A DNA stretch of 64,000 bases, taken from the NCBI GenBank assembly GCA_039033415.1, contig JBCCCR010000008.1, positions 124,001 through 188,000 of the forward strand, read 5' to 3'. The notes under the pieces were generated by a model. That model searched no databases and had not been told where the DNA came from. It worked only from the letters and a program-made list of their open reading frames with translations. This DNA is from Pseudomonadota bacterium (lineage in GTDB: Bacteria > Pseudomonadota > Gammaproteobacteria > Xanthomonadales > SZUA-38). The position numbers and the translations under genes were made by a program. Shown here one piece after another: positions 11,801 to 33,486 of this stretch (positions are counted from its first letter, which is position 1; every line of letters starts with the position of its first letter).

Positions 11801-12685
11801 GTGACCCAGCGCGGCAGGATTTTCCAGTTTCTCCTGGCCTTGCTCGGAAAACTCCCGATGGGCCTGAATCGCAGCCTCGGACGCGGTCTGGGCCGACTGT
11901 TTCGACGCTTGCCCAACCGCACCCGCGACGTGGCTCGCCGCAATATCGAGCAGTGTTTTCCCGACTTATCGAGCAAAAGTCGCGAGGCGCTGGCCCGGGA
12001 GACCATGACGCAGATCGGCTATGGCTTTCTCGAGCTGCCGCTGTTTTGGCGCCGAACGCCCGATCAGACGCTGAGCCTGATCAGCAAGATCCACGGCAAA
12101 CCCGTCTTCGACGCCGCCCTGGCGGAGGGGCACGGCATGTTGCTCGCAGCCCCCCACCTGGGCGCCTGGGAGCTGCTGTGCCAGTATCTGTCGACTCGCG
12201 GGGACTGTTCGTTCCTGTATCGGGAAGCCAAAGACGCGGGAATCTCCGAAGTCATCACGGCCGGGCGTGAACGGCTGGGCGCGGAGATGGTGCTCGCGGG
12301 AGCCAGCGGCGTTCGACGACTGTTTAAGGCGACCAAAGAAGGCCGGATTGTCGGCATCCTGCCCGATCAGCAGCCCAAGGGTGGCCAGGGCGAGTTTGCG
12401 CCGTTTTTTGGGCATCAAACGCTGACCATGGTGCTGTACTCGAAGCTGGCGCAGCGCAGTCCGGCGCCGTTGATCCTGGCTTACGCCGAGCGTCTGGCCG
12501 GTGGCCGCACCTTCGATCTACATTTTGTCGCCGGCGATCCCGCCATCCGGGATCGCGATCTGTCCGTGTCGCTGGGGGCATTAAACGCGCAGATTGAGGG
12601 GATGGTCCGCGCCTGTCCGGCCCAGTATCAGTGGGGCTATAAGCGATTTTCCATCCGTCCCGAGGGCGAGGCTGCTTTCTACTGA
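11801..12685 (+). CDS. LpxL/HtrB-type lipid A acyltransferase
   Basis: A 294-residue inner-membrane acyltransferase that adds a secondary acyl chain (often laurate) to Kdo2-lipid IVA. The H-x4-E catalytic motif is in APHLGAWE. Other family stretches are FLYREAKDAG, GIGILPDQQPK-like (VGILPDQQP), and QYQWGYKRFS near the C-terminus. An N-terminal hydrophobic helix anchors it. Translation starts at a GTG. Whether it is the lauroyl or the myristoyl enzyme cannot be decided from sequence. It converges with the ECF sigma gene 28 bases downstream. Confidence 0.88.
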   Translation: MTQRGRIFQFLLALLGKLPMGLNRSLGRGLGRLFRRLPNRTRDVARRNIEQCFPDLSSKSREALARETMTQIGYGFLELPLFWRRTPDQTLSLISKIHGKPVFDAALAEGHGMLLAAPHLGAWELLCQYLSTRGDCSFLYREAKDAGISEVITAGRERLGAEMVLAGASGVRRLFKATKEGRIVGILPDQQPKGGQGEFAPFFGHQTLTMVLYSKLAQRSPAPLILAYAERLAGGRTFDLHFVAGDPAIRDRDLSVSLGALNAQIEGMVRACPAQYQWGYKRFSIRPEGEAAFY

Positions 12686-12713: not shown

Positions 12714-13334
12714 CTAAGAAAAACCGCCCGTCGGCGTCAGGCGTGTTCGCAGCCAGGCGCGGGCGAACCGCCAGTGGCGGCCGACCGTCGCGGTGCCGAC
12801 ACCCAGCACCGCTGCGGTGTCTTCGATGCTCAGACCCGCGAGGTAGCGCAGCTCCACCACCTTGGCGGCCGCCTCGTTGATCTCCTGTAGCCGACCCAGC
12901 GCCTCATCGAGCTCCAGCCAGTTGCCAAAGCCGCCGGGTGCCGCCAGCGCCACGTCTTCCAGGTCGAGTCGCTGGGCACGCCCCCCGCGTTTTTCGCTGA
13001 GCCGTTTGCGGGTGTGGTCGACGACGATGCGCCGAATGATTCTGGCGGCAATGGCGTAGAAGTGGCTGCGATTGCGCCAGCTGGCGTTGCGCTGGGAGCT
13101 GAGCTTAAGCCAGGCCTCGTTCACCAGATCGGTCGATTCGAGGGTCGCATGAGGCGGCTGACCACCCAGCGCCCGGGCGGCAATCTTCTTGAGCTCCGGG
13201 TAGAGCCGGGCCATCAGCTGATCGCGCTCCTGCGGGCTGTCGGCCCGCCAGTTCTGCAGCATGCCGGTCAGGCCGCCGACGCCTGTTCCGGTGTTGTTTC
13301 CGAAGGTTCCCGTATCGCCTTGGGCTGTGCTCAT
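12714..13334 (-). CDS. ECF-type sigma factor, TIGR02999-like
   Basis: A 206-residue sigma-70 family factor of the ECF-like type that includes TIGR02999. Region 2 contains ATLESTDLVNEAWLKLS and HFYAIAARIIRRIVVDHTRK; region 4 contains VVELRYLAGLSIEDTAAVLG and a helix-turn-helix GTATVGRHWRFARAWLR. The first 40 residues are low-complexity Gly/Thr-rich. The start at 13334 is chosen because GGGAGA lies 6 bases upstream; the frame remains open to 13388. It is transcribed away from the HlyD/ABC/peptide cassette across about 105 bases, so it may control that cassette. No anti-sigma factor is adjacent. A second factor of this type is at 32729-33295. Confidence 0.85.
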   Translation of the reverse strand: MSTAQGDTGTFGNNTGTGVGGLTGMLQNWRADSPQERDQLMARLYPELKKIAARALGGQPPHATLESTDLVNEAWLKLSSQRNASWRNRSHFYAIAARIIRRIVVDHTRKRLSEKRGGRAQRLDLEDVALAAPGGFGNWLELDEALGRLQEINEAAAKVVELRYLAGLSIEDTAAVLGVGTATVGRHWRFARAWLRTRLTPTGGFS

Positions 13335-13439
13335 AGTGTCTCCCGTGTCGGTTTCCGCCCACGCTGACGCTGACCGTAACCCGATCAACTTAAGCCGCTA
13401 CCCCCGCGTCAGGGTATGTCGATTCTCGGGAGTTTGTCC

Positions 13440-14657
13440 ATGTCGAGCCTGTTTCGCCCGGCGGCGCTGGGCGCCAGACGGCAGCAAAGCTTCGGCGAGG
13501 TGCTGGTGACCACACCGGCTTTCGGCCGCTGGTGCGCGGCTGCCGGTGGTGTGTTGCTCTGCGCTTTGGCGGCGCTGGTGCTGCTGGGCAACTATCGAGC
13601 TCGCGTGACGGTATCGGGCTACCTGACCAGCGAGCTGGGCATGCTGCGGGTGCAGGCCGCAACGCCGGCACGGGTGAGCGTGATCTTGGTCCGCGAAGGC
13701 CAGTGGGTTGAGGCTTCGCAACCGCTTCTCGAGCTGGCGGTGGAGTCGTGGTCGCAGGGCGAGCGCCTCGAGGACGTGCGGCGCCAGAGTGCTGATGCGC
13801 AGGTGGCCGAGCTGAGTGCCGCGATCGCTCGCCATCATGAGCGTGAGCGCGTAGACCGCAAACGACGGGCCGCTGCGCTGGCGGCGGGCCGCCGCGAGCT
13901 GGCGCTGCTGACGGTCCAGGCGGATGACGCAGAGGCTCGCCGGGTACTGGCCGGCGAGCAGTATGCGCTGGCTCGCCGCGCGTTCGAGCGGAACCTGATC
14001 AGCCGCGCGGACTTTCAGCGCGCGTCGCTCGCCCACCTGGAGGCCGGTATGGCCCGCCGCGATATTCAGCTCACGCTCGAACGTCAGGAGCAGGCGGTTT
14101 CCGAGCTTGCCCATCAGCTCACGGTTGCGCCGCTGGGCATGGCCCAGGAGCTTGGCGAGCTGTCACAGCGTCTGGCGCACGCCCGAAGTCAGCAGGCGGA
14201 CGCGCGCTTTGCCGGAGCTTCGGTACTGCGAGCGCCGGCGGCTGGACGCGTTCGAGGCCTGACCGCTCAACCCGGCCAGTGGGTCATGCCGGGTCAGCTT
14301 CTAGCCACCGTGCAGCGCCCTGCGCCGCTGGTTGCCAGGATGCTGCTGCCCACGAGGGCGGCCGGCCAGGTGCAGGTGGGGCAGCCCGCACGCATCCGGC
14401 TTGCCGCGTTTCCGTATCAGAAGCACGGTTTGATCGAAGCACAGGTATCGCTGCTGTCTCAGGCGCTGGTCGAACCGACGGAGCTGCCGTCGGGGCTGTC
14501 GCTCGCGGAGCCCGCCTATTGGGTGACCGCCCGGCTCACCGGCGGACATGCCGGGCTGGCGGTCCGGCCCGGCATGGTGCTCAGCGCGGATCTTCTGCGG
14601 GAAGAGCGGCGCATCTGGGAGTGGCTGGCCGAACCGCTGCTGTCGCTGAAGCGTTGA
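13440..14657 (+). CDS. HlyD-family membrane fusion protein of a peptide exporter
   Basis: A 405-residue periplasmic adaptor. One membrane helix is near residues 32-53 (GGVLLCALAALVLLG). Lipoyl-like halves follow (LRVQAATPARVSVILVREGQ and VLRAPAAGRVRGLTAQPGQW), flanking an arginine- and glutamate-rich alpha-helical hairpin. Such proteins link an inner-membrane ABC exporter to the periplasm or to an outer-membrane channel. No TolC-like gene is in the window. The ATG at 13440 has CGGGAG 7 bases upstream; an in-frame ATG at 13416 is possible. The stop overlaps the next gene's start. Confidence 0.88.
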   Translation: MSSLFRPAALGARRQQSFGEVLVTTPAFGRWCAAAGGVLLCALAALVLLGNYRARVTVSGYLTSELGMLRVQAATPARVSVILVREGQWVEASQPLLELAVESWSQGERLEDVRRQSADAQVAELSAAIARHHERERVDRKRRAAALAAGRRELALLTVQADDAEARRVLAGEQYALARRAFERNLISRADFQRASLAHLEAGMARRDIQLTLERQEQAVSELAHQLTVAPLGMAQELGELSQRLAHARSQQADARFAGASVLRAPAAGRVRGLTAQPGQWVMPGQLLATVQRPAPLVARMLLPTRAAGQVQVGQPARIRLAAFPYQKHGLIEAQVSLLSQALVEPTELPSGLSLAEPAYWVTARLTGGHAGLAVRPGMVLSADLLREERRIWEWLAEPLLSLKR

Positions 14658-16741
14658 ACCCGCCGAGGACGCTGAACCTTCGCCTCTGGCCGCGTCGTCA
14701 GCGTGTGCCGCTGCAGCTGCAGGCTGAGGCGGGCGAGTGCGGTTTGGCGTGCCTGGCGATGGTGGCCGGCTTTCACGGACAAGGTATCACGTTGGCAGAG
14801 CTGCGCCGCCGCGAGTGCTCGTCGCTCCGCGGGTCCACACTCGGGCAGCTGGCGGGGGCGGCGCGGCGCCTGGGTCTCGCCACCCGGCCGCTCCGGCTGG
14901 AGCTGGCTGAGCTCGCCGGCCTGCGACTCCCCTGCGTGCTGCATTGGGACTTCAACCACTTTGTGGTGCTCGAACGGGTAAGCCGCCGGACGCTGCTCCT
15001 GGCTGATCCCGCTCGTGGTCGGCGCCGGGTGGGCCTGACTGAGGCGAGCGACCGCTTTACCGGCGTCGCGCTGGAGCTGGTTCCGGCCGCTAACTTTGAA
15101 CGCCACCGGCCATCGCCGGAGCTGCGGCTGCGTCAGTTTTTTGGGGCCCTGCGCGGTTTGTGGGGCGGCCTGCTGCAGATCCTGACGCTGTCGTTGGTGC
15201 TCCAGCTGCTCGCGCTCGCAGGCCCGTACTACTCCCAGCTGGTTGTCGACGAGGTCATCGTCAGCGCTGATGAAGACCTCCTGCTGATCCTTGCCCTGGG
15301 CTTTGGCGCCCTGGGCCTGTGGCGAATCGTTCTCGGCACCGCGCGTTCCTGGCTGACCCTTTATCTGGGAACGCGCCTTCGCTTCGGCTGGGTGGTGCGA
15401 CTGTTTCGCCAGCTTCTCGGGCTACCCCTGGACTATTTTCAGCGCCGCCACGTGGGCGATATTGTGTCGCGGTTCGGGTCGATCAGCGCAGTGCAGGCGC
15501 TGGTTACCACCGCGAGTATCGAGGCCGTCGTGGACGGTGTCATGGCGCTAACCACGCTGGTGGTGATGCTTGCCTACAGCCCGTCGCTGACGGTTTTGGT
15601 GCTGCTGCTGCTGGCGCTTCAGCTGAGTGTCCAGCTCGCGTTCTATCCCGCCACCCGCCGGGCGCAGGAGGCTTCGCTTGTAAGCCAGGCTGCCGAAGCC
15701 AGCCACTTTATGGAGACGCTGCGCGCCATGCCCACCCTCAAGAGTTTTGCCGCTGAAGGGCTCCGCGAAGGCCGGTGGCTCAATCGGCTTAATGCGAGCA
15801 TCAACGACGAGCTCCGGGTTTCGCGACTGGGGTTGTTCCAGGGTATTGGGCTTCAGCTGTTGACGCTGTTCGACCGCATCGGCGTGCTGTACTTCGCCGC
15901 GCTGCTGGTGATCGACGGCGGCATGACCCTGGGAATGCTGATGGCGTATCTCGCGTACAAGAGTCACTTCACCGGGGCGTCGCAGGCCCTGATCGGCTGC
16001 TGGATGCAGTTTCGTATGGTGTCGCTGCACCTGGAGCGCCTGGCGGATATTGTCCAGGCTGAACCGGAGCCTGCCGGCCAGCTCCCGGTACCGAGGCTGG
16101 CCGGTGCGGTCCAGGTGACGGACCTGAGCTTTTCCTATCACGCGCATGACCGGCCGGTGCTCGATCGACTGAGCCTCAGCATCACCCCCGGCGAATGTGT
16201 AGCGATCGCCGGGCCGTCCGGCTGCGGGAAATCTACGCTGCTGATGCTGCTGCAAGGCCTGCTGAGGCCGACGGCGGGGGTGATCCGGGTGGACGGCTTC
16301 GAGCTAGCGAGGCTGCGACGCGACGGCTATCGAGCGCAGGTTGCGGCCGTGATGCAGGGTGATCAGCTGCTGGCGGGCTCACTGCGTGACAACATCACCC
16401 TGTTCGACCCGCAGCCTGATGAAGACCGCCTGCGCGAAGCGGCGCGCAAGGCGGCCGTGGCCGACACGATCGACGCGATGCCGATGGGGTTTGAAACGCT
16501 GCTGGGCGATCTGGGCAGCAGCCTGTCGGGCGGCGAGCGCCAGCGCGTGCTGCTGGCCCGCGCGCTGTACCGACAGCCTTCGCTGCTGCTGCTTGACGAG
16601 GCGTCGAGCCATCTGGATGCGGCGACGGAGCGAGCGATCAACACCAGCCTGCGGGCGCTGCCGATGACGCGGATTGTGGTGGCCCACCGGCGCGAAACGC
16701 TGGCGATGGCCGATCGAATCATCGAGCTGCCCGGCGCCTGA
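14654..16741 (+). CDS. C39-peptidase-containing ABC exporter
   Basis: A 695-residue bacteriocin-type exporter that removes a double-glycine leader and exports the cargo. The N-terminal C39 cysteine protease is intact: Cys29 in EAGECGLACLAMVAG, His102 in HWDFNHFVVLE, Asp118 in LLADPARG. Next come about six membrane helices (residues about 160-440) and an ATPase with Walker A GPSGCGKST (about 520), signature LSGGERQRVLLA (about 624) and Walker B LLLLDEASSHLD (Asp648, Glu649). A TTG at 14654 overlapping the HlyD stop (TTGA) is the likely start. An ATG at 14279 would overlap the HlyD gene by nearly 380 bases and give an unrelated N-terminus. The obvious substrate is the peptide at 16863-17036. 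Confidence 0.93.
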   Translation: MNPPRTLNLRLWPRRQRVPLQLQAEAGECGLACLAMVAGFHGQGITLAELRRRECSSLRGSTLGQLAGAARRLGLATRPLRLELAELAGLRLPCVLHWDFNHFVVLERVSRRTLLLADPARGRRRVGLTEASDRFTGVALELVPAANFERHRPSPELRLRQFFGALRGLWGGLLQILTLSLVLQLLALAGPYYSQLVVDEVIVSADEDLLLILALGFGALGLWRIVLGTARSWLTLYLGTRLRFGWVVRLFRQLLGLPLDYFQRRHVGDIVSRFGSISAVQALVTTASIEAVVDGVMALTTLVVMLAYSPSLTVLVLLLLALQLSVQLAFYPATRRAQEASLVSQAAEASHFMETLRAMPTLKSFAAEGLREGRWLNRLNASINDELRVSRLGLFQGIGLQLLTLFDRIGVLYFAALLVIDGGMTLGMLMAYLAYKSHFTGASQALIGCWMQFRMVSLHLERLADIVQAEPEPAGQLPVPRLAGAVQVTDLSFSYHAHDRPVLDRLSLSITPGECVAIAGPSGCGKSTLLMLLQGLLRPTAGVIRVDGFELARLRRDGYRAQVAAVMQGDQLLAGSLRDNITLFDPQPDEDRLREAARKAAVADTIDAMPMGFETLLGDLGSSLSGGERQRVLLARALYRQPSLLLLDEASSHLDAATERAINTSLRALPMTRIVVAHRRETLAMADRIIELPGA

Positions 16742-16756
16742 TCGGCTTTGCCGGGC
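16729..16756 (+). other. Hairpin straddling the exporter stop codon
   Basis: GCCCGGC (16729-16735) pairs with GCCGGGC (16750-16756) across a 14-base loop. It spans the end of the ABC exporter gene and precedes the 57-codon peptide gene. It may stabilise or separate the two messages so that the peptide can be made in excess. There is no T-run. Confidence 0.3.
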
Positions 16757-16862
16757 AGACGCGCGTCAATGGTCAGGCGTCACACATGGCTCGCGAAATG
16801 TCGGAATACCATCGCGGCCCGAGCGCCATCTCTCGTTACGCAGTCAAACAAGGAGGTCAACC

Positions 16863-17036
16863 ATGGAACGTCTTCATCCCAATACTCTGCACGAAATCAG
16901 CGGCGGCACGGGGCAGCAAACCGTACCGGTGGACGGCGATAAGCCGGGACCGGATGTCTATCTGGTTCCCGAACCCACCTATCCCCCGCTGCCCTTTCCC
17001 GAGCCGCCTGAGTTCAACGAAAACCCGGACCTTTAG
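16863..17036 (+). CDS. Double-glycine-leader, proline-rich acidic peptide precursor
   Basis: A 57-residue peptide with an unusually strong ribosome site (AAGGAGGT, 6-7 bases upstream). The leader is 15 residues and ends LHPNTLHEISGG, which places Leu at -12, Leu at -7, Ile at -4 and Gly-Gly at -2/-1, the pattern read by C39 exporters. The predicted 42-residue core begins TGQQTVPVDG and ends EFNENPDL. It has 12 prolines, 8 acidic residues, one lysine and no cysteine. That excludes a lanthipeptide or disulfide bacteriocin and does not resemble known class II pediocin-like peptides. It follows the exporter gene by 121 bases and precedes the DUF2441-like gene by 9 bases. It is probably a secreted signal, toxin or modified peptide; which one is unknown. 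Confidence 0.8.
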   Translation: MERLHPNTLHEISGGTGQQTVPVDGDKPGPDVYLVPEPTYPPLPFPEPPEFNENPDL

Positions 17037-17045
17037 GCGGCCGGT

Positions 17046-17600
17046 ATGCAGGACTACTTCTGGGTGTCGTCGCATGATTACTTTATGGGCTCAACCATCA
17101 GCCCGGGTCACTGGGGTCGGGTGCTGTCCAGCTATCTCATCGGCGTGCCGCAGCTGGTGGGCAGGCATGCGGAGCGGCTGCCCAAAGCGCTGCGGGAATA
17201 CATTTTTGAGACCGTTCGCCTGAGTCTGAAGCCCAAACACCCCAGCCGCCTGGAGGCGCTTTTTCTGTGTCCAGATTTGACGCAGGCCTGCCGCCTGATC
17301 CGCGCTTGCCAGCCCCATCGCAACCATGAGTTTGTGTATCGGGTAGAGCTGGTGGACGACCGTCCCGTGGTTCCGGCCAGCATGGATCTGACCCGGATCG
17401 ACCTGGGCGATACCATTCATACGCTGCGCCAAAAAGCCCACCTCTACTGGTCGGGCATGGAAACCGAAACGATGGAGCTGTTGACCCGCAGCCCGATTCG
17501 GATCCGCGAAAAGGTCCCGCTGGAACTGGCCCCGAACGAGCCCACCAAAGAAGCCGCTGCACCGCCGGCACCGCACCTGCAGGCTTCAGCCCGCGCCTGA
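17046..17600 (+). CDS. DUF2441-like protein encoded next to the exported peptide
   Basis: A 184-residue soluble protein. It carries an N-terminal PGHWGR segment after YFWVSSHDYF, then HPSRLEALFLCPDLTQACRLI, then HEFVYRVEL, and a late ELLTRSPIRI strand. This order (PG-x-WGR, PSRL-x-x-LF with A, Y-x-V, E-x-L) resembles DUF2441 and, more loosely, folds of the ADP-ribosyltransferase/RES type. That resemblance is by eye and unproven. The last 25 residues are an Ala/Pro-rich tail. The gene starts 9 bases after the peptide gene, so it is likely co-translated and could modify the peptide or protect against it. A strong terminator follows. Confidence 0.6.
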   Translation: MQDYFWVSSHDYFMGSTISPGHWGRVLSSYLIGVPQLVGRHAERLPKALREYIFETVRLSLKPKHPSRLEALFLCPDLTQACRLIRACQPHRNHEFVYRVELVDDRPVVPASMDLTRIDLGDTIHTLRQKAHLYWSGMETETMELLTRSPIRIREKVPLELAPNEPTKEAAAPPAPHLQASARA

Positions 17601-17609
17601 CGGACACTC

Positions 17610-17651
17610 CCCCTGGCCCCTGCTGCGTCGCTCGCCAGGGGCCCTTTTTTT
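17610..17651 (+). terminator. Rho-independent terminator of the peptide cassette
   Basis: CCCCTGGC (17610-17617) pairs with GCCAGGGG (17634-17641), and seven T residues follow at 17645-17651. It lies just after the DUF2441-like gene and before the convergent membrane-protein gene, so it closes the export operon. Confidence 0.85.
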
Positions 17652-17675: not shown

Positions 17676-18686
17676 CTACTCGCCCAGCTGGCAGTATTCC
17701 CAGCAGAGGTTGCGCCCCCAGCGTTCGGCGGTGATCAGAGCGCTGTCGCCGAGCGTTAGACCGCTGCGTTCGAGCATCTCTTCGATCTGGGGATCGCGTC
17801 CGCCGGCCGCGAGGCTGGCGGCGGTGAGGTAGGCGTGGGCGGCGAGCTCGTCCTCTTCGAAAATCACGCCGTCGTTCAGCGCGATGGCAGTCGCAAGAAA
17901 CGCCCGCGGATGCCCGGTCAGCAGCGCCCGGTCGAGGTATTCAAGCGATTTTGCGCGGTGGAGGTCGAGGTAGTGGGGTTCTCGGAATACCCGAGCCTGG
18001 GTCTCCCGCAGCAGTCCCGGCAGCTCCTGGTAAAACCGCACCAGGGCGGGCAGATAGTCCAGATCGGCTGCCAGCATCAGCCAGTCGCTGGCGGTCTTGA
18101 CCAGGTCTTCGTCAGCAAAATCTTCGCAGCGCAGAAAGTCATCCTGCAGCCGGTCCATCGCACGGTCGAGTCGCTGGGAAGAAACCCGCCGGGGTCGGTT
18201 TTCGGCGTACTGGCTGAACTGCTCCAGCCGGAATTCAAACTGCTCGTCGGAGCGGGGCTCGCCGACGCAGCTGCGGGCAAACTCGTAGGCCGCAAAAGCG
18301 GTGGCCGCGTCGATGGTGTCCGGGTTGGCGGTGGCGGTCAGATAGTCTTCCATCCGCCACGACTCCGCCAGCTTCGTCTCGTTAAGCGCCAGATCCGACT
18401 CGGGAACGATTCGCTCGGCCAGCGTCACAGCCGCCTGTGCTCGATCGGGGGGTTGCTCGACCTCCACGTCGTTGCGTGCCGGCCGACTGAGCCGTGCGCC
18501 TACCGCGGGCTTTGGCCGTTCGACCTCAGCCGTCTGATCGACCGCCAGCGGGTCTTCGCCGCCGGGCGATTCAGCAACGGTCGGGCCGGCGGCGTCCTGC
18601 GTTTCTGGCTGATTGATGCTGAGAAAAAGCCCCAGCCCCGTCAGGGCCAGCGCCGCCAGCACAATGATGACTAGACGAACTAACAC
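17676..18686 (-). CDS. Membrane-anchored protein, tandem paralogue A
   Basis: A 336-residue protein of unknown function. One N-terminal membrane helix (residues 1-24, LVRLVIIVLAALALTGLGLF) is followed by a disordered Pro/Glu/Ala-rich linker and, from about residue 95, an all-helical domain with SEL1/TPR-like features (SLEYLDRALLTGHPRAFLAT). It ends in WGRNLCWEYCQLG. The neighbour upstream in transcription (18694-19728) shares the same plan and the same cysteine-bearing C-terminal motif. The two are separated by 7 bases and form an operon that converges on the peptide cassette. The domain should face the periplasm, where the two terminal cysteines could form a disulfide. Confidence 0.7.
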   Translation of the reverse strand: MLVRLVIIVLAALALTGLGLFLSINQPETQDAAGPTVAESPGGEDPLAVDQTAEVERPKPAVGARLSRPARNDVEVEQPPDRAQAAVTLAERIVPESDLALNETKLAESWRMEDYLTATANPDTIDAATAFAAYEFARSCVGEPRSDEQFEFRLEQFSQYAENRPRRVSSQRLDRAMDRLQDDFLRCEDFADEDLVKTASDWLMLAADLDYLPALVRFYQELPGLLRETQARVFREPHYLDLHRAKSLEYLDRALLTGHPRAFLATAIALNDGVIFEEDELAAHAYLTAASLAAGGRDPQIEEMLERSGLTLGDSALITAERWGRNLCWEYCQLGE

Positions 18687-18693
18687 ACGTCCC

Positions 18694-19728
18694 TCAGGCC
18701 GGTCCCAGGCGGCAGTAGGTTTGGCAAAGGTCGCGGCCGCTTTCCCTGGCCTCGCGAAGCTGATCGGGGTTCAGCACGGTATCGAGCAGCGCCATGATCT
18801 CCTGAGCCTCACTGTTGCCGCCGGTGGCCGCCATGTCCGCAGCCGCCGCGTAGGCGTAGGACGCAACGGGGTCTTCATCGAAGATGATGTTCTCTCGCAG
18901 TGCGAGGGAATATTCGTAGAGCGCGTCGTGATGCCCGGATTTCAGGGCCGCCTCAAGGAACGCCGGCGCCAGCTGCTGGTACTCGCGTACCCGCTCCGGG
19001 TAGCGATAAACGCCCCACCGATCCTGACTGAGCAGCCAGCGCGCGCTGCGGTGATAGGCAATCTGTGCCTGCGGAAATCCTCGGTTGGCGGCCAGGGTCA
19101 GCCAATCGAGCATCAGCGGCAGCAGCGCTTGATCATCCGGCAGCGTCTCACAGCGAATGAGCCGCCGGCGGTAATTGTCCACAATCCCTTCGATCTCTTC
19201 CGGCGACATGCGCCGGTTCATTCGCTCGCTGCCTCGGATGCGCTCAACGCGTTGGTCAAGCGAGTCTACCGATCGAGGCTGGCGATGGCAGGCTCGCAGA
19301 TAGGTGTAGAGCTCGTAGATCTCTCGACCCGACAGCTCGTCTGCCCGCGCGGCTTTGGCCTGGTAGGTTTCGACGGTCCAGTCCTCGCTGCGACGCTGGA
19401 ACTGACGATAAATCTGGATTTTGGTGAGGTCGAACTCCTCTTCGGTGAACGCGGAGCCGGGCCAAAAGTCTGCGCTGACCGGCGTCTCGTTCGCAGGCGT
19501 CGCCGCGTCAGCCTGCAGGCCAACCGCCGGCTGCCGAGGTCGGAGCTTCGGCACGCGGGTCTCGGGGTTGGTGCCGGGCCGGGCCGCTTCCGGCTGGCCT
19601 GTCGCCACCGCCGGGTCATCACGCAGCGCTAGCTGCGGTTCGGGCTCAGTCAGGGCGAGCCAGGTCCCCAGGGCTGCGGCGACCAACGCCAATCCCAGCA
19701 GACTCATTTGGGTGCTTCGTGACCTCAC
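18694..19728 (-). CDS. Membrane-anchored protein, tandem paralogue B
   Basis: A 344-residue paralogue of the adjacent downstream gene. It has an N-terminal membrane helix (MSLLGLALVAAALGTWLAL), a low-complexity linker, then a helical domain with SEL1-like repeats (WLTLAANRGFPQAQIAYH; FLEAALKSGHHDALYEYSLA). It ends GRDLCQTYCRLG, nearly the same motif as its sister. Translation may begin at the GTG at 19728 or at the ATG at 19707; neither has an ideal ribosome site. The function is unknown. It is divergent from the secreted subtilase, with about 100 bases between them. Confidence 0.7.
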   Translation of the reverse strand: MRSRSTQMSLLGLALVAAALGTWLALTEPEPQLALRDDPAVATGQPEAARPGTNPETRVPKLRPRQPAVGLQADAATPANETPVSADFWPGSAFTEEEFDLTKIQIYRQFQRRSEDWTVETYQAKAARADELSGREIYELYTYLRACHRQPRSVDSLDQRVERIRGSERMNRRMSPEEIEGIVDNYRRRLIRCETLPDDQALLPLMLDWLTLAANRGFPQAQIAYHRSARWLLSQDRWGVYRYPERVREYQQLAPAFLEAALKSGHHDALYEYSLALRENIIFDEDPVASYAYAAAADMAATGGNSEAQEIMALLDTVLNPDQLREARESGRDLCQTYCRLGPA

Positions 19729-30059: not shown

Positions 30060-32732
30060 TCAGCCGTCCGAGGCGGAGAGTTGTTCTGTCCCCAGGATGG
30101 CTCGCGCGAGCTGAAGCGGGATCGGATATTTGATCTGCGACCGATCGTCGTTGAGGGCCGCCAGGCTCTGGCCGAGCTGGTCTTCGGTGTCCTGCGTTGG
30201 ATCGATTGCATGCTGCGCCAGGCCCTGCAGGAGGAGTGCAATCCAGACAAATTCGTGGTCCTCGCCGTAAACGCGCTTCAGCACCGGTAGCGCCTGACCC
30301 AGCGACGATAGCGCTGCTGAGGGCTGCTGCTGGCTGAGCTGAAACTGCGCAAACAGCAGAAGCCCGCGCGCATACTGCGGGTGTTCGGTACCGGTGGCGG
30401 TCGCAAGCTGCTGAAAGCCATCGTCAAAGCTTTGTCGGGCGGCCCGCAGCTCTCCCTGATCACTGAGTAGCGTTCCATAACGCACCAGCGCGACCCCGAG
30501 TTTGGGATTTCCCGGCGAGGTCTGCGCCCGCACCAGCGGCATCGCCCGGTCAAGCGTCTGACGGGCTTTTTCCAGCTCGCCAAGGCCGTGATAGCTGTGC
30601 CCCAGATTGATGAGCGCCATCACTGTGCGGGGGTCATCGACGCCGATCGAATCTGCGCACGCCTGATGGAATTCCTCGAAGTGCGCCACCGCCTGGGGAT
30701 AACGGCCGCCCTCCAGCAGCACGCGACCGTACTGGTAATCCCCCCAGAGCAGCTGTGGATGCCGCGGCGGATACTTGCTCCTCAAGATCGTCAGCATCCG
30801 GTTCATCGAGTCCTCTGACACGTCCCACTCGCCGAGGAAAAAGCTGGCCGTTGCTCGATAGCCCAGCGCATCAGCGACCCATGGATGATCGGGCCCGAAG
30901 GCTTCGGTCAATTGGGTCATCGCCTGCTCGGCCGCGTCGATCGCCTCCCAATAGCGACCCGTGTTTTCGTAGTTTTCCGCAGCGGTGGCGTAGACGCTGC
31001 CCGCCACCTGCGCAAACTTCGGCTGCTGTTCGATCTTTGGTAGGTCCGTCAGCAGCCCCCGGATCAGCGCGCTCTGCTCTTCATAACGCCCGGTGTGTGA
31101 ATGCAGGCGGGCCAGGTCCATCCGAGCCTTCATGTTGTGTTCGATCATCGACGGATCGGCGCTGGCCTCGATAATCTCATTCAGCAGCGCCTCGACCGGT
31201 TCGAGCTGCAGACTGTCAACCAGCGCGTTGGCCTGGACCAGGCTCAACCGCACGGCGTCTTTGTCCCGTCCCGCCTCCCGGAAAAGATCCGCCGCTTCTG
31301 CGGCAAGCTCAACGGATTGATCGAAGCGCCCCAGCTTTCGCTGAATGTCCGCAAGCGCGGCCAGGACCGAGGCTTTCTGAAGCGGGAATGCGTCCAGGCG
31401 GTCGGGCAGATTTTCCTGGGCTTTGTCCAGCAGCTGATTGGCCGTCAGCGGCTCATTCTGATTGGACCAGGGGTCAGCGCCGTCAAACATCTCTAGCAGA
31501 AAGTCTTGCACCGCCTGGGCCTGCTCGGCATTGGCGTTGGCCTGAACCAGCGCCTGGCGAGCCCGTTGGGCCTGCCAGAGGGTGCTCGCGATTCCAATGG
31601 TGCCGATGGCGGTTGTCAGCAGCACCGCGGTGACGCCAACCTTGTGGCGTCGAACGTACTTGCTCAGACGATACAAGGTGGTATCCGGACTCGCGACGAT
31701 GGGCCGGTTTTGCTGCCACAGGCGCAGGTCCTGGGCTAGCTCAGCGGCCGACGCATAGCGGCGCGACGGCTCAGGACGGGCGGCCATCGCCACGATGTTC
31801 GCCAGATCAGCATCCCGACGGCGCAGTGCCGCCAGCGCGTTAGTCGCCAGCCCACCGTCAGCGTCGAGATGCTGGCTCGGCGCCTGCCCGGTCAGCAGCT
31901 GAAACAGAACGACACCCAGCGCGTAAACGTCCGTGGCGGTGGTAATTTGGCGACCGGCCTTTTGCTCCGGGGCGGCAAAGCCCGGAGTGAATGCTCGGGT
32001 AGTGGTGGCCTCGGCGTCGTTCTCTTCCACCAGTCTGGCAATGCCGAAGTCGAGCAGCCGCACGCTGCCGCGGGAATCCACCATGATGTTGGATGGCTTG
32101 AGGTCCCGATGCACCACCAGATTCTGCTGCGCGAAAGCCACCGCGTCACACACCTGGAGAAACAGTCGCACAATGGCCGTTGGCCCCAGGCTGCGGGTGC
32201 TGACGTGCTCGTCGATGCGCTGGCCGTCGACGAACTCCATGGCGATGAAGGGTGTCCCGTCCTCCGCCAGGCCGGCATCCAGCAGCCCCGCAATGTGGGG
32301 ATGCTGCAGCGCTGCAAGGATCTGCTGTTCGCGATCGAAATGGTCACGAAGCCGGCTGCTGATCAGGCCAACGTTCAGGAGTTTCACCGCCGCGATCTGA
32401 TCAAAACTGTCGGTGTCGCGGCGCGCGCGATAAACGCTCGCCATTCCCCCGCGACCGATCGGGTCTTCCAGCAACCAGTCACCGATCCGTCGCCCGGTCA
32501 GTGCGCTGTTGGCGCCCGAGGTGTTAGGTACCCACTCGGAGACGGTTTGGTCCAAGGGGCTTTGGGTGGTGAGGTGCGCATCGATCAACTGCTTGAGACG
32601 CTGCGCCACCGCCGCTTCCAACGCTTGGCCGGCCAGCCAGCCTTCCGGGTTGTCCGGTTGTTCTTGCAGGTACCGACTAAAGGCCTCGTCAGCCTCCCGC
32701 CACTGGCGCCGCTGCTCCGGTGACAGGCTCAT
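30060..32732 (-). CDS. Serine/threonine protein kinase with C-terminal TPR domain
   Basis: An 890-residue receptor-like kinase. The kinase domain (about residues 85-350) has the glycine loop IGRGGMASVY, Lys in AAVKLLN, catalytic VVHRDLKPSN (Asp near 210), and LLDFGIARL. One membrane helix (about 375-400, VGVTAVLLTTAIGTIGIAS) precedes a long TPR-containing region, which should lie outside the cytoplasm. The stop of the upstream ECF sigma gene overlaps this start as ATGA. Such sigma factor/kinase pairs are a recurring unit in which the kinase is thought to act on the sigma factor. Target unknown. Confidence 0.92.
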   Translation of the reverse strand: MSLSPEQRRQWREADEAFSRYLQEQPDNPEGWLAGQALEAAVAQRLKQLIDAHLTTQSPLDQTVSEWVPNTSGANSALTGRRIGDWLLEDPIGRGGMASVYRARRDTDSFDQIAAVKLLNVGLISSRLRDHFDREQQILAALQHPHIAGLLDAGLAEDGTPFIAMEFVDGQRIDEHVSTRSLGPTAIVRLFLQVCDAVAFAQQNLVVHRDLKPSNIMVDSRGSVRLLDFGIARLVEENDAEATTTRAFTPGFAAPEQKAGRQITTATDVYALGVVLFQLLTGQAPSQHLDADGGLATNALAALRRRDADLANIVAMAARPEPSRRYASAAELAQDLRLWQQNRPIVASPDTTLYRLSKYVRRHKVGVTAVLLTTAIGTIGIASTLWQAQRARQALVQANANAEQAQAVQDFLLEMFDGADPWSNQNEPLTANQLLDKAQENLPDRLDAFPLQKASVLAALADIQRKLGRFDQSVELAAEAADLFREAGRDKDAVRLSLVQANALVDSLQLEPVEALLNEIIEASADPSMIEHNMKARMDLARLHSHTGRYEEQSALIRGLLTDLPKIEQQPKFAQVAGSVYATAAENYENTGRYWEAIDAAEQAMTQLTEAFGPDHPWVADALGYRATASFFLGEWDVSEDSMNRMLTILRSKYPPRHPQLLWGDYQYGRVLLEGGRYPQAVAHFEEFHQACADSIGVDDPRTVMALINLGHSYHGLGELEKARQTLDRAMPLVRAQTSPGNPKLGVALVRYGTLLSDQGELRAARQSFDDGFQQLATATGTEHPQYARGLLLFAQFQLSQQQPSAALSSLGQALPVLKRVYGEDHEFVWIALLLQGLAQHAIDPTQDTEDQLGQSLAALNDDRSQIKYPIPLQLARAILGTEQLSASDG

Positions 32733-33295
32733 GGCGGCGCCGCCGACTGCCCGAGCTGCGCATGAAGAAACGCCCGTGCCCGGCTCCAGTCGCGTTTGAC
32801 CGACCGGGCGGATCGCTCGGTGAGGTCCGCAATCTCGTCCACCGTCAGGCCGCCAAAGAATTTCAGTTCCACCAGATCGTGGAGCTGGGCGTCCAGCTCG
32901 CCCAGATCCGCCAGGGCTTCGTTCAAATCCAGCAGCGTGGCGGTGGGCCCCAGCTCACCCGAGATGTTTTCCGTCAGCGTTATTGCCGCCTGGTCGCCAC
33001 CGCGGCGCTGGGCGTTGGCTTTCCGGGCGTGGTCGATGAGGATCTGACGCATGGCTTTGGAAGCGCACACGAAAAAGTGCCGCCGATCGACGAGATCCAG
33101 CCGACGTGCGCCGGAGAGCTTTAGATAGGTTTCATTGACGAGCACCGTCGGCGTAATCGTATGCCCGGCCCGAACGCCGGCAAGCCGCGCAGACGCGAGG
33201 CGCTTCAGCTCCGGGTAGATATCCTCAAACACCTGCTTCAAGGCTTCGCCGTCTCCATCGCGGGCGGCGGCCAGCAGCTGGGTGATTTCCGTCAT
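32729..33295 (-). CDS. ECF sigma factor coupled to the Ser/Thr kinase
   Basis: A 188-residue TIGR02999-type ECF factor. Region 2 contains ITPTVLVNETYLKLS and HFFVCASKAMRQILIDHARK; region 4 contains VELKFFGGLTVDEIADLTER and RSVKRDWSRARAFL. The ATG at 33295 follows AAGGA by 7 bases and is preferred over an in-frame start at 33313. It overlaps the kinase start by 4 bases, so the two are translationally coupled. It is divergent from the secreted beta-helix protein at 33487, which may be one of its targets. Confidence 0.9.
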   Translation of the reverse strand: MTEITQLLAAARDGDGEALKQVFEDIYPELKRLASARLAGVRAGHTITPTVLVNETYLKLSGARRLDLVDRRHFFVCASKAMRQILIDHARKANAQRRGGDQAAITLTENISGELGPTATLLDLNEALADLGELDAQLHDLVELKFFGGLTVDEIADLTERSARSVKRDWSRARAFLHAQLGQSAAPP

Positions 33296-33486
33296 GAGCA
33301 ATCCTTGCAGCACACATTATCCAGTGTAGACCAAAACCGAGACCGCCTTAATCCGGCGGTGGGAGAGGAGCGGGCTGCCCGAATGACCTGCTTAAGGCCT
33401 ACCCACAGACCCCCAAAAATTTGGGTAAACGCTGCACAGAGGCTCGCGAATACTAAAGATGAATACCGTTGTTTCGGAGGCCTCCT

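What the first reader, a model, noticed from the sequence alone, without database searches (positions are those of the whole stretch)
12714..17651. Compact ECF sigma / HlyD / C39-ABC / peptide / DUF2441-like cassette
A divergent ECF-type sigma factor faces an operon of HlyD adaptor, C39 exporter with all three catalytic residues, a double-glycine peptide and a DUF2441-like protein, ended by a clean terminator. The exporter and peptide match the bacteriocin export scheme. Control by a TIGR02999-like sigma factor without an adjacent kinase, and the partner protein, are unusual. It may be an undescribed peptide signalling or antagonism system.
Basis: partly seen in the sequence, partly recalled or inferred. 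Interest (0 to 1): 0.75.

Follow-up and report, generated by a model that had tools for sequence, protein, structure and literature searches.

The report
Sigma-linked cassette secreting proline-rich peptides
A small gene cluster in an uncultured Lysobacterales bacterium appears to cut and secrete a short, acidic, proline-rich peptide under a dedicated sigma factor, together with an unstudied protein shaped like ADP-ribosyltransferases, a combination not met in the papers that were searched.

Summary
In detail: divergent TIGR02999/PF07638 sigma factor, HlyD adaptor, C39-peptidase ABC exporter, 57-aa double-glycine peptide, DUF2441 protein, terminator. The genes tested are intact and under purifying selection (dN/dS 0.05-0.21). 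The exporter is the only C39-ABC protein found in the genome. The cassette recurs in 3 of the 4 genomes seen of its family.

HlyD/C39 export is common in the order, so the exporter is microcin V-type. Two things are unusual. (1) A divergent PF07638-type sigma factor goes with proline-rich peptides: 4 of 4 sigma-linked C39 loci (two lineages) have them, 0 of 92 others by the same rule (33 with a recognised peptide; the rule dropped two that would be exceptions). In a second family the sigma gene also has a Ser/Thr kinase gene beside it. (2) The DUF2441 protein models as an ADP-ribosyltransferase fold (2AUA Z 12.7, rifampin ADP-ribosyltransferase Arr Z 7.7). Among loci examined it is beside C39 genes only in this family, with Trp where most relatives have His.

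Best reading: sigma-controlled export of an acidic proline-rich peptide, with an ART-fold partner that modifies or binds it. Activity and target are untested. A new variant of a known kind.

The parts
12714..13334 (-). TIGR02999/PF07638 ECF-type sigma factor, 206 aa, divergent; sigma2.2 motif ESTD
13335..13439 (.). divergent intergenic region expected to hold the promoters; no motif established
   Evidence: three-way alignment, inconclusive
13416..14657 (+). HlyD-type membrane fusion protein; true start probably 13440
14654..16741 (+). C39-peptidase ABC exporter, 695 aa, TTG start overlapping the HlyD stop; the only C39-ABC protein found in the genome
16863..17036 (+). double-glycine precursor peptide, 57 aa: 15-aa leader plus 42-aa core, 12 Pro, net -7, calculated pI 4.05
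17046..17600 (+). DUF2441-type protein, predicted ADP-ribosyltransferase fold, 184 aa
17615..17651 (+). intrinsic terminator: stem with a long, partly paired loop, then C and U7

Best explanation
This is a self-contained peptide secretion cassette. A divergent TIGR02999-type sigma factor, related to the kinase-controlled ECF43 group, is inferred to transcribe the HlyD-C39-peptide-DUF2441 operon. The C39 domain is inferred to cut the precursor after the GG of its 15-aa leader, and the ABC/HlyD pair, with an outer-membrane TolC encoded elsewhere, to release the 42-aa acidic proline-rich core. The DUF2441 protein has no signal peptide (by eye) and lies 9 bp behind the peptide gene, so it is inferred to act on the precursor in the cytosol: as an NAD-dependent modifier, or as a non-catalytic ART-fold protein that binds it (chaperone or self-protection). 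Shown by sequence: gene content, intact frames, purifying selection, conserved order, sigma-peptide association, fold prediction. Inferred: sigma control, cleavage, export, any modification, and the biological role.
For: Domains and residues. The only C39-ABC match in the genome: the other 47 matches begin at query residue 149 or later, beyond the C39 domain. One confident match of the peptide family in the genome. Leader hydrophobic at -4, -7 and -12 in the four family peptides aligned (read by eye). Order kept in G001 and G003 beside the same LpxL-type gene. Purifying selection. 4 of 4 sigma-linked C39 loci have a GG peptide with core Pro of 0.18 or more, 0 of 92 others, Fisher 3e-7; among loci with a recognised peptide 4/4 v 0/33, 1.5e-5. 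In G1008 and G1161 the sigma gene is followed by a protein-kinase gene. ART fold.
Against: The four sigma-linked loci are only two lineages, and the 92 others are not independent either. The 0.18 threshold was set after seeing the peptides, and L005 is near it (0.19). Two peptides that pass the threshold at loci without a sigma gene seen were dropped by the stricter leader rule: L082 (core 49% Pro; its contig ends there) and L075 (22-aa core, 4 Pro = 0.18). Counting both against the association gives 4/4 v 2/35, p 1.8e-4, and by lineage 0.009. G1008 shows no DUF2441 match in its whole genome, nor is there one in the G1161 stretch, so it is not part of the core system. No promoter motif, expression or product data.
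Confidence: 0.72

Rival explanations
1. Ordinary class II microcin: the peptide kills competitors and the DUF2441 protein is its immunity protein.
For: Same exporter scheme and a 15-aa leader as microcin V (PMC10231218, passages). The partner gene follows the peptide gene directly. G003 also has a CPBP/Rce1-type protease (PF02517, 4e-18), a family that I recall as including bacteriocin immunity proteins.
Against: The core is acidic (net -7, pI 4.05), unlike cationic proline-rich antimicrobial peptides (recalled). The partner looks soluble by eye, whereas microcin V-type immunity proteins are membrane proteins (recalled).
Confidence: 0.25
2. Signalling: the secreted peptide is a pheromone whose level feeds back on the sigma factor.
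For: Divergent regulator; peptidase-containing exporters are said to export GG peptides for cell-to-cell communication (PMC7018657, start of abstract in the listing).
Against: No receptor gene in the cassette; a kinase gene beside the sigma gene was seen only in the second family.
Confidence: 0.2
3. DUF2441 is a passenger: a mobile defence or phage-type gene that landed behind the peptide gene and does not act on it.
For: Other DUF2441 genes lie in phages and plasmids, and 0 of 11 such or other outside loci have a C39 domain in the stretch fetched. The window protein also matches two phage families of unknown function.
Against: Kept behind the peptide gene(s) in 3 of 3 family genomes with the cassette, at 58% identity across genera, dN/dS 0.088.
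Confidence: 0.2

Closest known systems
Microcin V (CvaA/CvaB/TolC) type I secretion
   Same: C39-ABC plus HlyD-type adaptor, GG precursor with a 15-aa leader (microcin V details: PMC10231218, passages)
   Different: Acidic proline-rich core, own divergent sigma factor, ART-fold partner, no recognisable membrane immunity protein
ECF43 sigma factors (EcfP/PknT, EcfK/PknS)
   Same: TIGR02999/PF07638 family, Thr at the phosphosite position; kinase gene next to the sigma gene in G1008 and G1161
   Different: Here no kinase gene nearby, and both acidic DxxD positions are kept (ESTD, against the QTTA consensus)
DUF2441 / BC2332 (2AUA) within the ADP-ribosyltransferase clan; Arr is the closest characterised fold in the search
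   Same: Predicted fold; shares the ten positions that are invariant across the 14 rows aligned, itself included
   Different: Trp in place of the first-motif His; lies in a peptide secretion operon

Membership tests
C39/GG-peptide type I secretion (microcin V-like) | C39 peptidase domain fused to ABC exporter | tested here: met
   Cys, His and Asp
C39/GG-peptide type I secretion (microcin V-like) | adjacent GG-leader precursor and HlyD adaptor | tested here: met
C39/GG-peptide type I secretion (microcin V-like) | TolC-type outer membrane partner | not tested
   none recognised in the cassette; genome not searched for it
C39/GG-peptide type I secretion (microcin V-like) | antibacterial activity with cognate immunity | not testable with these tools
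   -
ECF43 sigma factors | TIGR02999/PF07638 sequence family (my proxy for ECF43; the ECF43 model itself was not available) | tested here: met
ECF43 sigma factors | Thr at the phosphosite position of sigma2.2 | tested here: met
   (ESTD; 52 of 56 family rows have Thr there); consensus from PMC13147305 passages
ECF43 sigma factors | uncharged residues in place of the acidic DxxD positions | tested here: not met
   E and D kept; both acidic in 4 of 5 cassette rows against 2 of 51 paralogues
ECF43 sigma factors | adjacent Ser/Thr kinase gene | tested here: not met
   (motif scan): the only kinase motif in the window is at 32111; none in L004, L005, L079. Met in G1008 and G1161
DUF2441 (ART clan) | profile similarity to DUF2441 and the fold of 2AUA | tested here: met
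   Pfam alone is below its cut-off
DUF2441 (ART clan) | canonical H-Y-E ART active site | tested here: not met
   first-motif His is Trp here (His in 7 of 11 other relatives); Glu144 is kept; the Tyr is not evident by eye here nor in the relatives, so DUF2441 as a family may not use H-Y-E
DUF2441 (ART clan) | ADP-ribosyltransferase activity | not testable with these tools
   -

The most novel reading that the evidence does not exclude
The DUF2441 protein ADP-ribosylates, or otherwise modifies with NAD, the proline-rich precursor before export, so the cassette makes an ADP-ribosylated secreted peptide; and kinase-type ECF sigma factors have a dedicated branch that controls proline-rich peptide secretion.
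Probability: 0.2. Interest if true: 0.82.

Novelty: new variant of a known kind. Interest (0 to 1): 0.52.

Why it matters
The known outputs of ECF43-type sigma factors that I saw in print are a T6SS against amoebae (EcfK) and polymyxin resistance (EcfP) (PMC8999054, PMC13147305, passages). Peptide secretion would be a new output. A cytosolic ART-fold protein encoded with a GG precursor makes a peptide ADP-ribosylation hypothesis directly testable by mass spectrometry, and gives a concrete substrate candidate for the uncharacterised DUF2441 family.

Tried and rejected
A novel exporter: rejected. HlyD homologues (E up to 1e-10) occur in 70 of 299 genomes of the order, and 79 of the 82 loci scanned have both HlyD and C39.

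A defence system: no PADLOC hit for the DUF2441 protein, the peptide or HlyD; four hits for the exporter, which I take as ATPase-domain matches.

A single origin of the cassette sigma factors: one side of a branch with paralogues of G000 and one L222 row (85/46), but not with paralogues of G003, G1008 and G1161 added (2 changes; 40% of bootstrap trees with 1). Left open. The exporters of the two families lie in different clades (quick tree, SH-aLRT only).

A shared promoter motif: inconclusive. More DUF2441 relatives from viral contigs: 8 scans with 8 queries; 5 found none, 3 found the queried phage or kin of it at 45-100% identity. First structure model, 3 rows: pLDDT 42.5, discarded.

Literature. 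In the listings shown (15 of 44 papers in 101, 12 of 66, 12 of 34, all in the others; searches found none) I saw no paper joining an ECF43-type sigma factor, C39 export and proline-rich peptides, nor ADP-ribosylation of GG peptides. I read passages of five papers only. Most subscription journals are not in that library.

Full report
WHAT IS THERE. The window lies in a 6.4 Mb genome, G000; the order Lysobacterales is read from two close relatives so named. Between an LpxL-type acyltransferase gene (11801-12685) and two convergent genes without a confident Pfam family sits a divergent pair of units: a TIGR02999/PF07638 sigma factor on the minus strand, and on the plus strand HlyD, C39-ABC, a 57-aa peptide and a DUF2441 protein, closed by a terminator. 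The HlyD stop and ABC start overlap, and 9 bp separate the peptide stop from the DUF2441 start, which fits one operon.

IS IT REAL. Against a congener (G001) dN/dS is 0.052 for the sigma factor, 0.130 for the HlyD C-terminal part, 0.123 for the exporter, 0.206 for the peptide (57 codons), 0.088 for DUF2441 and 0.061 for LpxL. Of the four genomes of the family seen, three carry the DUF2441 gene; the fourth, G002 (2.9 Mb, 92% complete), has neither a DUF2441 nor a HlyD match. In G003 the order is LpxL / sigma (divergent) / HlyD / C39-ABC / CPBP protease / two GG peptides / DUF2441. In G001 the cassette is split over two contigs: sigma and HlyD start on one, the rest on the other.

THE EXPORTER IS ORDINARY. 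HlyD relatives occur in 70 of 299 genomes of the order, at 87 places. Of these places 83 were fetched or are in the window; four, two of them repeats in G826, were not. Of 82 loci scanned, 79 have both HlyD and C39-ABC. In G000 it is the only C39-ABC: the other 47 matches begin at query residue 149 or later. A profile of the family peptides finds one confident place in G000; the other match, E 1.4, spans a stop.

THE SIGMA FACTOR GOES WITH PROLINE-RICH PEPTIDES. A second HlyD query, from G1008, gave matches in 64 of 198 genomes of its family; 20 further stretches were fetched from these. Of 101 loci given to (L004 and L079 of G001 were left out because that cassette is split), 96 had a C39-ABC match and 5 were dropped. 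A divergent PF07638-type sigma gene within 1.5 kb occurs in 4: window, G003, G1008 and G1161. All 4 have a GG peptide whose core is at least 18% proline; none of the other 92 does by the same rule, of which 33 had any recognised peptide (Fisher 3e-7 over all; 1.5e-5 among peptide-bearing loci). Against this: the threshold followed the data; L005 is at 0.19; the loci are not independent; and the stricter leader rule dropped two peptides that the looser scan shows at or above the threshold without a sigma gene seen, L082 (G928, 49% proline, contig ends just beyond the peptide) and L075 (22-aa core, 4 Pro). Counting both against the association gives 1.8e-4, and by lineage (2 of 2 against 2 of 35) 0.009. 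The exporters of the two families lie in different clades, which suggests that the association formed, or was kept, with different exporters. Whether the sigma factors share one origin is open.

KINASES. In G1008 and G1161 the gene after the sigma factor encodes a protein kinase with TPR repeats (Pkinase 1e-33 and 9e-34). In the family of the window none was seen nearby: the only kinase motif in the 64 kb window is at 32111, beside another sigma factor of the family. Across four genomes 34 of 51 paralogues taken have a kinase motif within 1.5 kb. ECF43 factors typically lack the acidic DxxD of sigma2.2 and are switched on by phosphorylation of a Thr there (PMC8999054 and PMC13147305, passages; the second also reports that EcfK keeps one acid and works without that Thr). 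The window protein keeps the Thr but also both acids (ESTD). Acids at both positions occur in 4 of 5 cassette rows against 2 of 51 paralogues (p 2e-4 by rows, 0.012 by lineage). It may therefore work without a kinase; this is inference, and against it the two G1008/G1161 factors have both acids and a kinase gene.

THE DUF2441 PROTEIN. Pfam alone is below its cut-off (21.4 of 25 bits), but a seven-row profile matches 2AUA at 4e-26, and two phage families of unknown function match it (1.7e-13 and 4e-5). Pfam places DUF2441 in the ART clan (PMC7955679, passages). The second AlphaFold2 model (7 rows, pLDDT 70.5; residues 24-43 and 162-184 poor) aligns to 2AUA with Z 12.7 over 145 residues, then Arr 7.7, 7.3 and 7.2, and most of the rows listed below are ART-fold enzymes or toxins. 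Z under 8 alone would be weak; the run of ART entries and the clan membership make it credible. Ten positions are invariant across all 14 rows aligned, the 3 cassette proteins included. The first-motif residue is Trp in those 3, His in 7, Tyr in 2 and Thr in 2 of the 11 others. It may be a pseudoenzyme or may work differently. DUF2441 is rare: counting G000 itself, 3 of 398 phylum genomes and 4 of 369 class genomes (of which one, G377, looked false when its frame was read); and 3 of 274 genomes drawn from the class around G1008, one of them weak. None of the 11 loci examined from outside the family has a C39 domain in the stretch fetched (3.2-18 kb).

MECHANISM AND STANDING. See Best explanation and rivals. 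As a system it works like microcin V export, and the exporter-peptide part meets those structural features; activity and immunity are untested. It is not filed as an ECF43 member, because two defining features were tested and not met. Overall: a new variant of a known kind, with one bold untested possibility, peptide ADP-ribosylation.

Noticed in passing
window 30060-33313 (-): Ser/Thr kinase with TPR repeats (890 aa) directly behind a PF07638-family sigma factor: a kinase-paired paralogue about 17 kb from the cassette.
   Followed up: partly
window 17676-18686 and 18694-19728 (-): Two adjacent, similar-looking proteins with N-terminal membrane anchors by eye and no confident Pfam family.
   Followed up: no
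L082 9289-9513 (-): GG peptide with 49% proline core (G928) at the very end of a contig; whether a sigma gene follows is unknown.
   Followed up: partly
L132 (Cronobacter phage phiES15): DUF2441 gene lies between the lysis genes and the terminase small subunit; a kinase and a PP2C phosphatase gene are annotated a few genes upstream.
   Followed up: no
G826:C1 2581282-2630061: Three HlyD copies with identical scores within 50 kb.
   Followed up: no
G000 genome: 43 matches to PF07638 at E 1e-3, 25 of them strong (over 99 bits); 13 of the 24 strong ones besides the cassette one have a kinase motif within 1.5 kb.
   Followed up: partly
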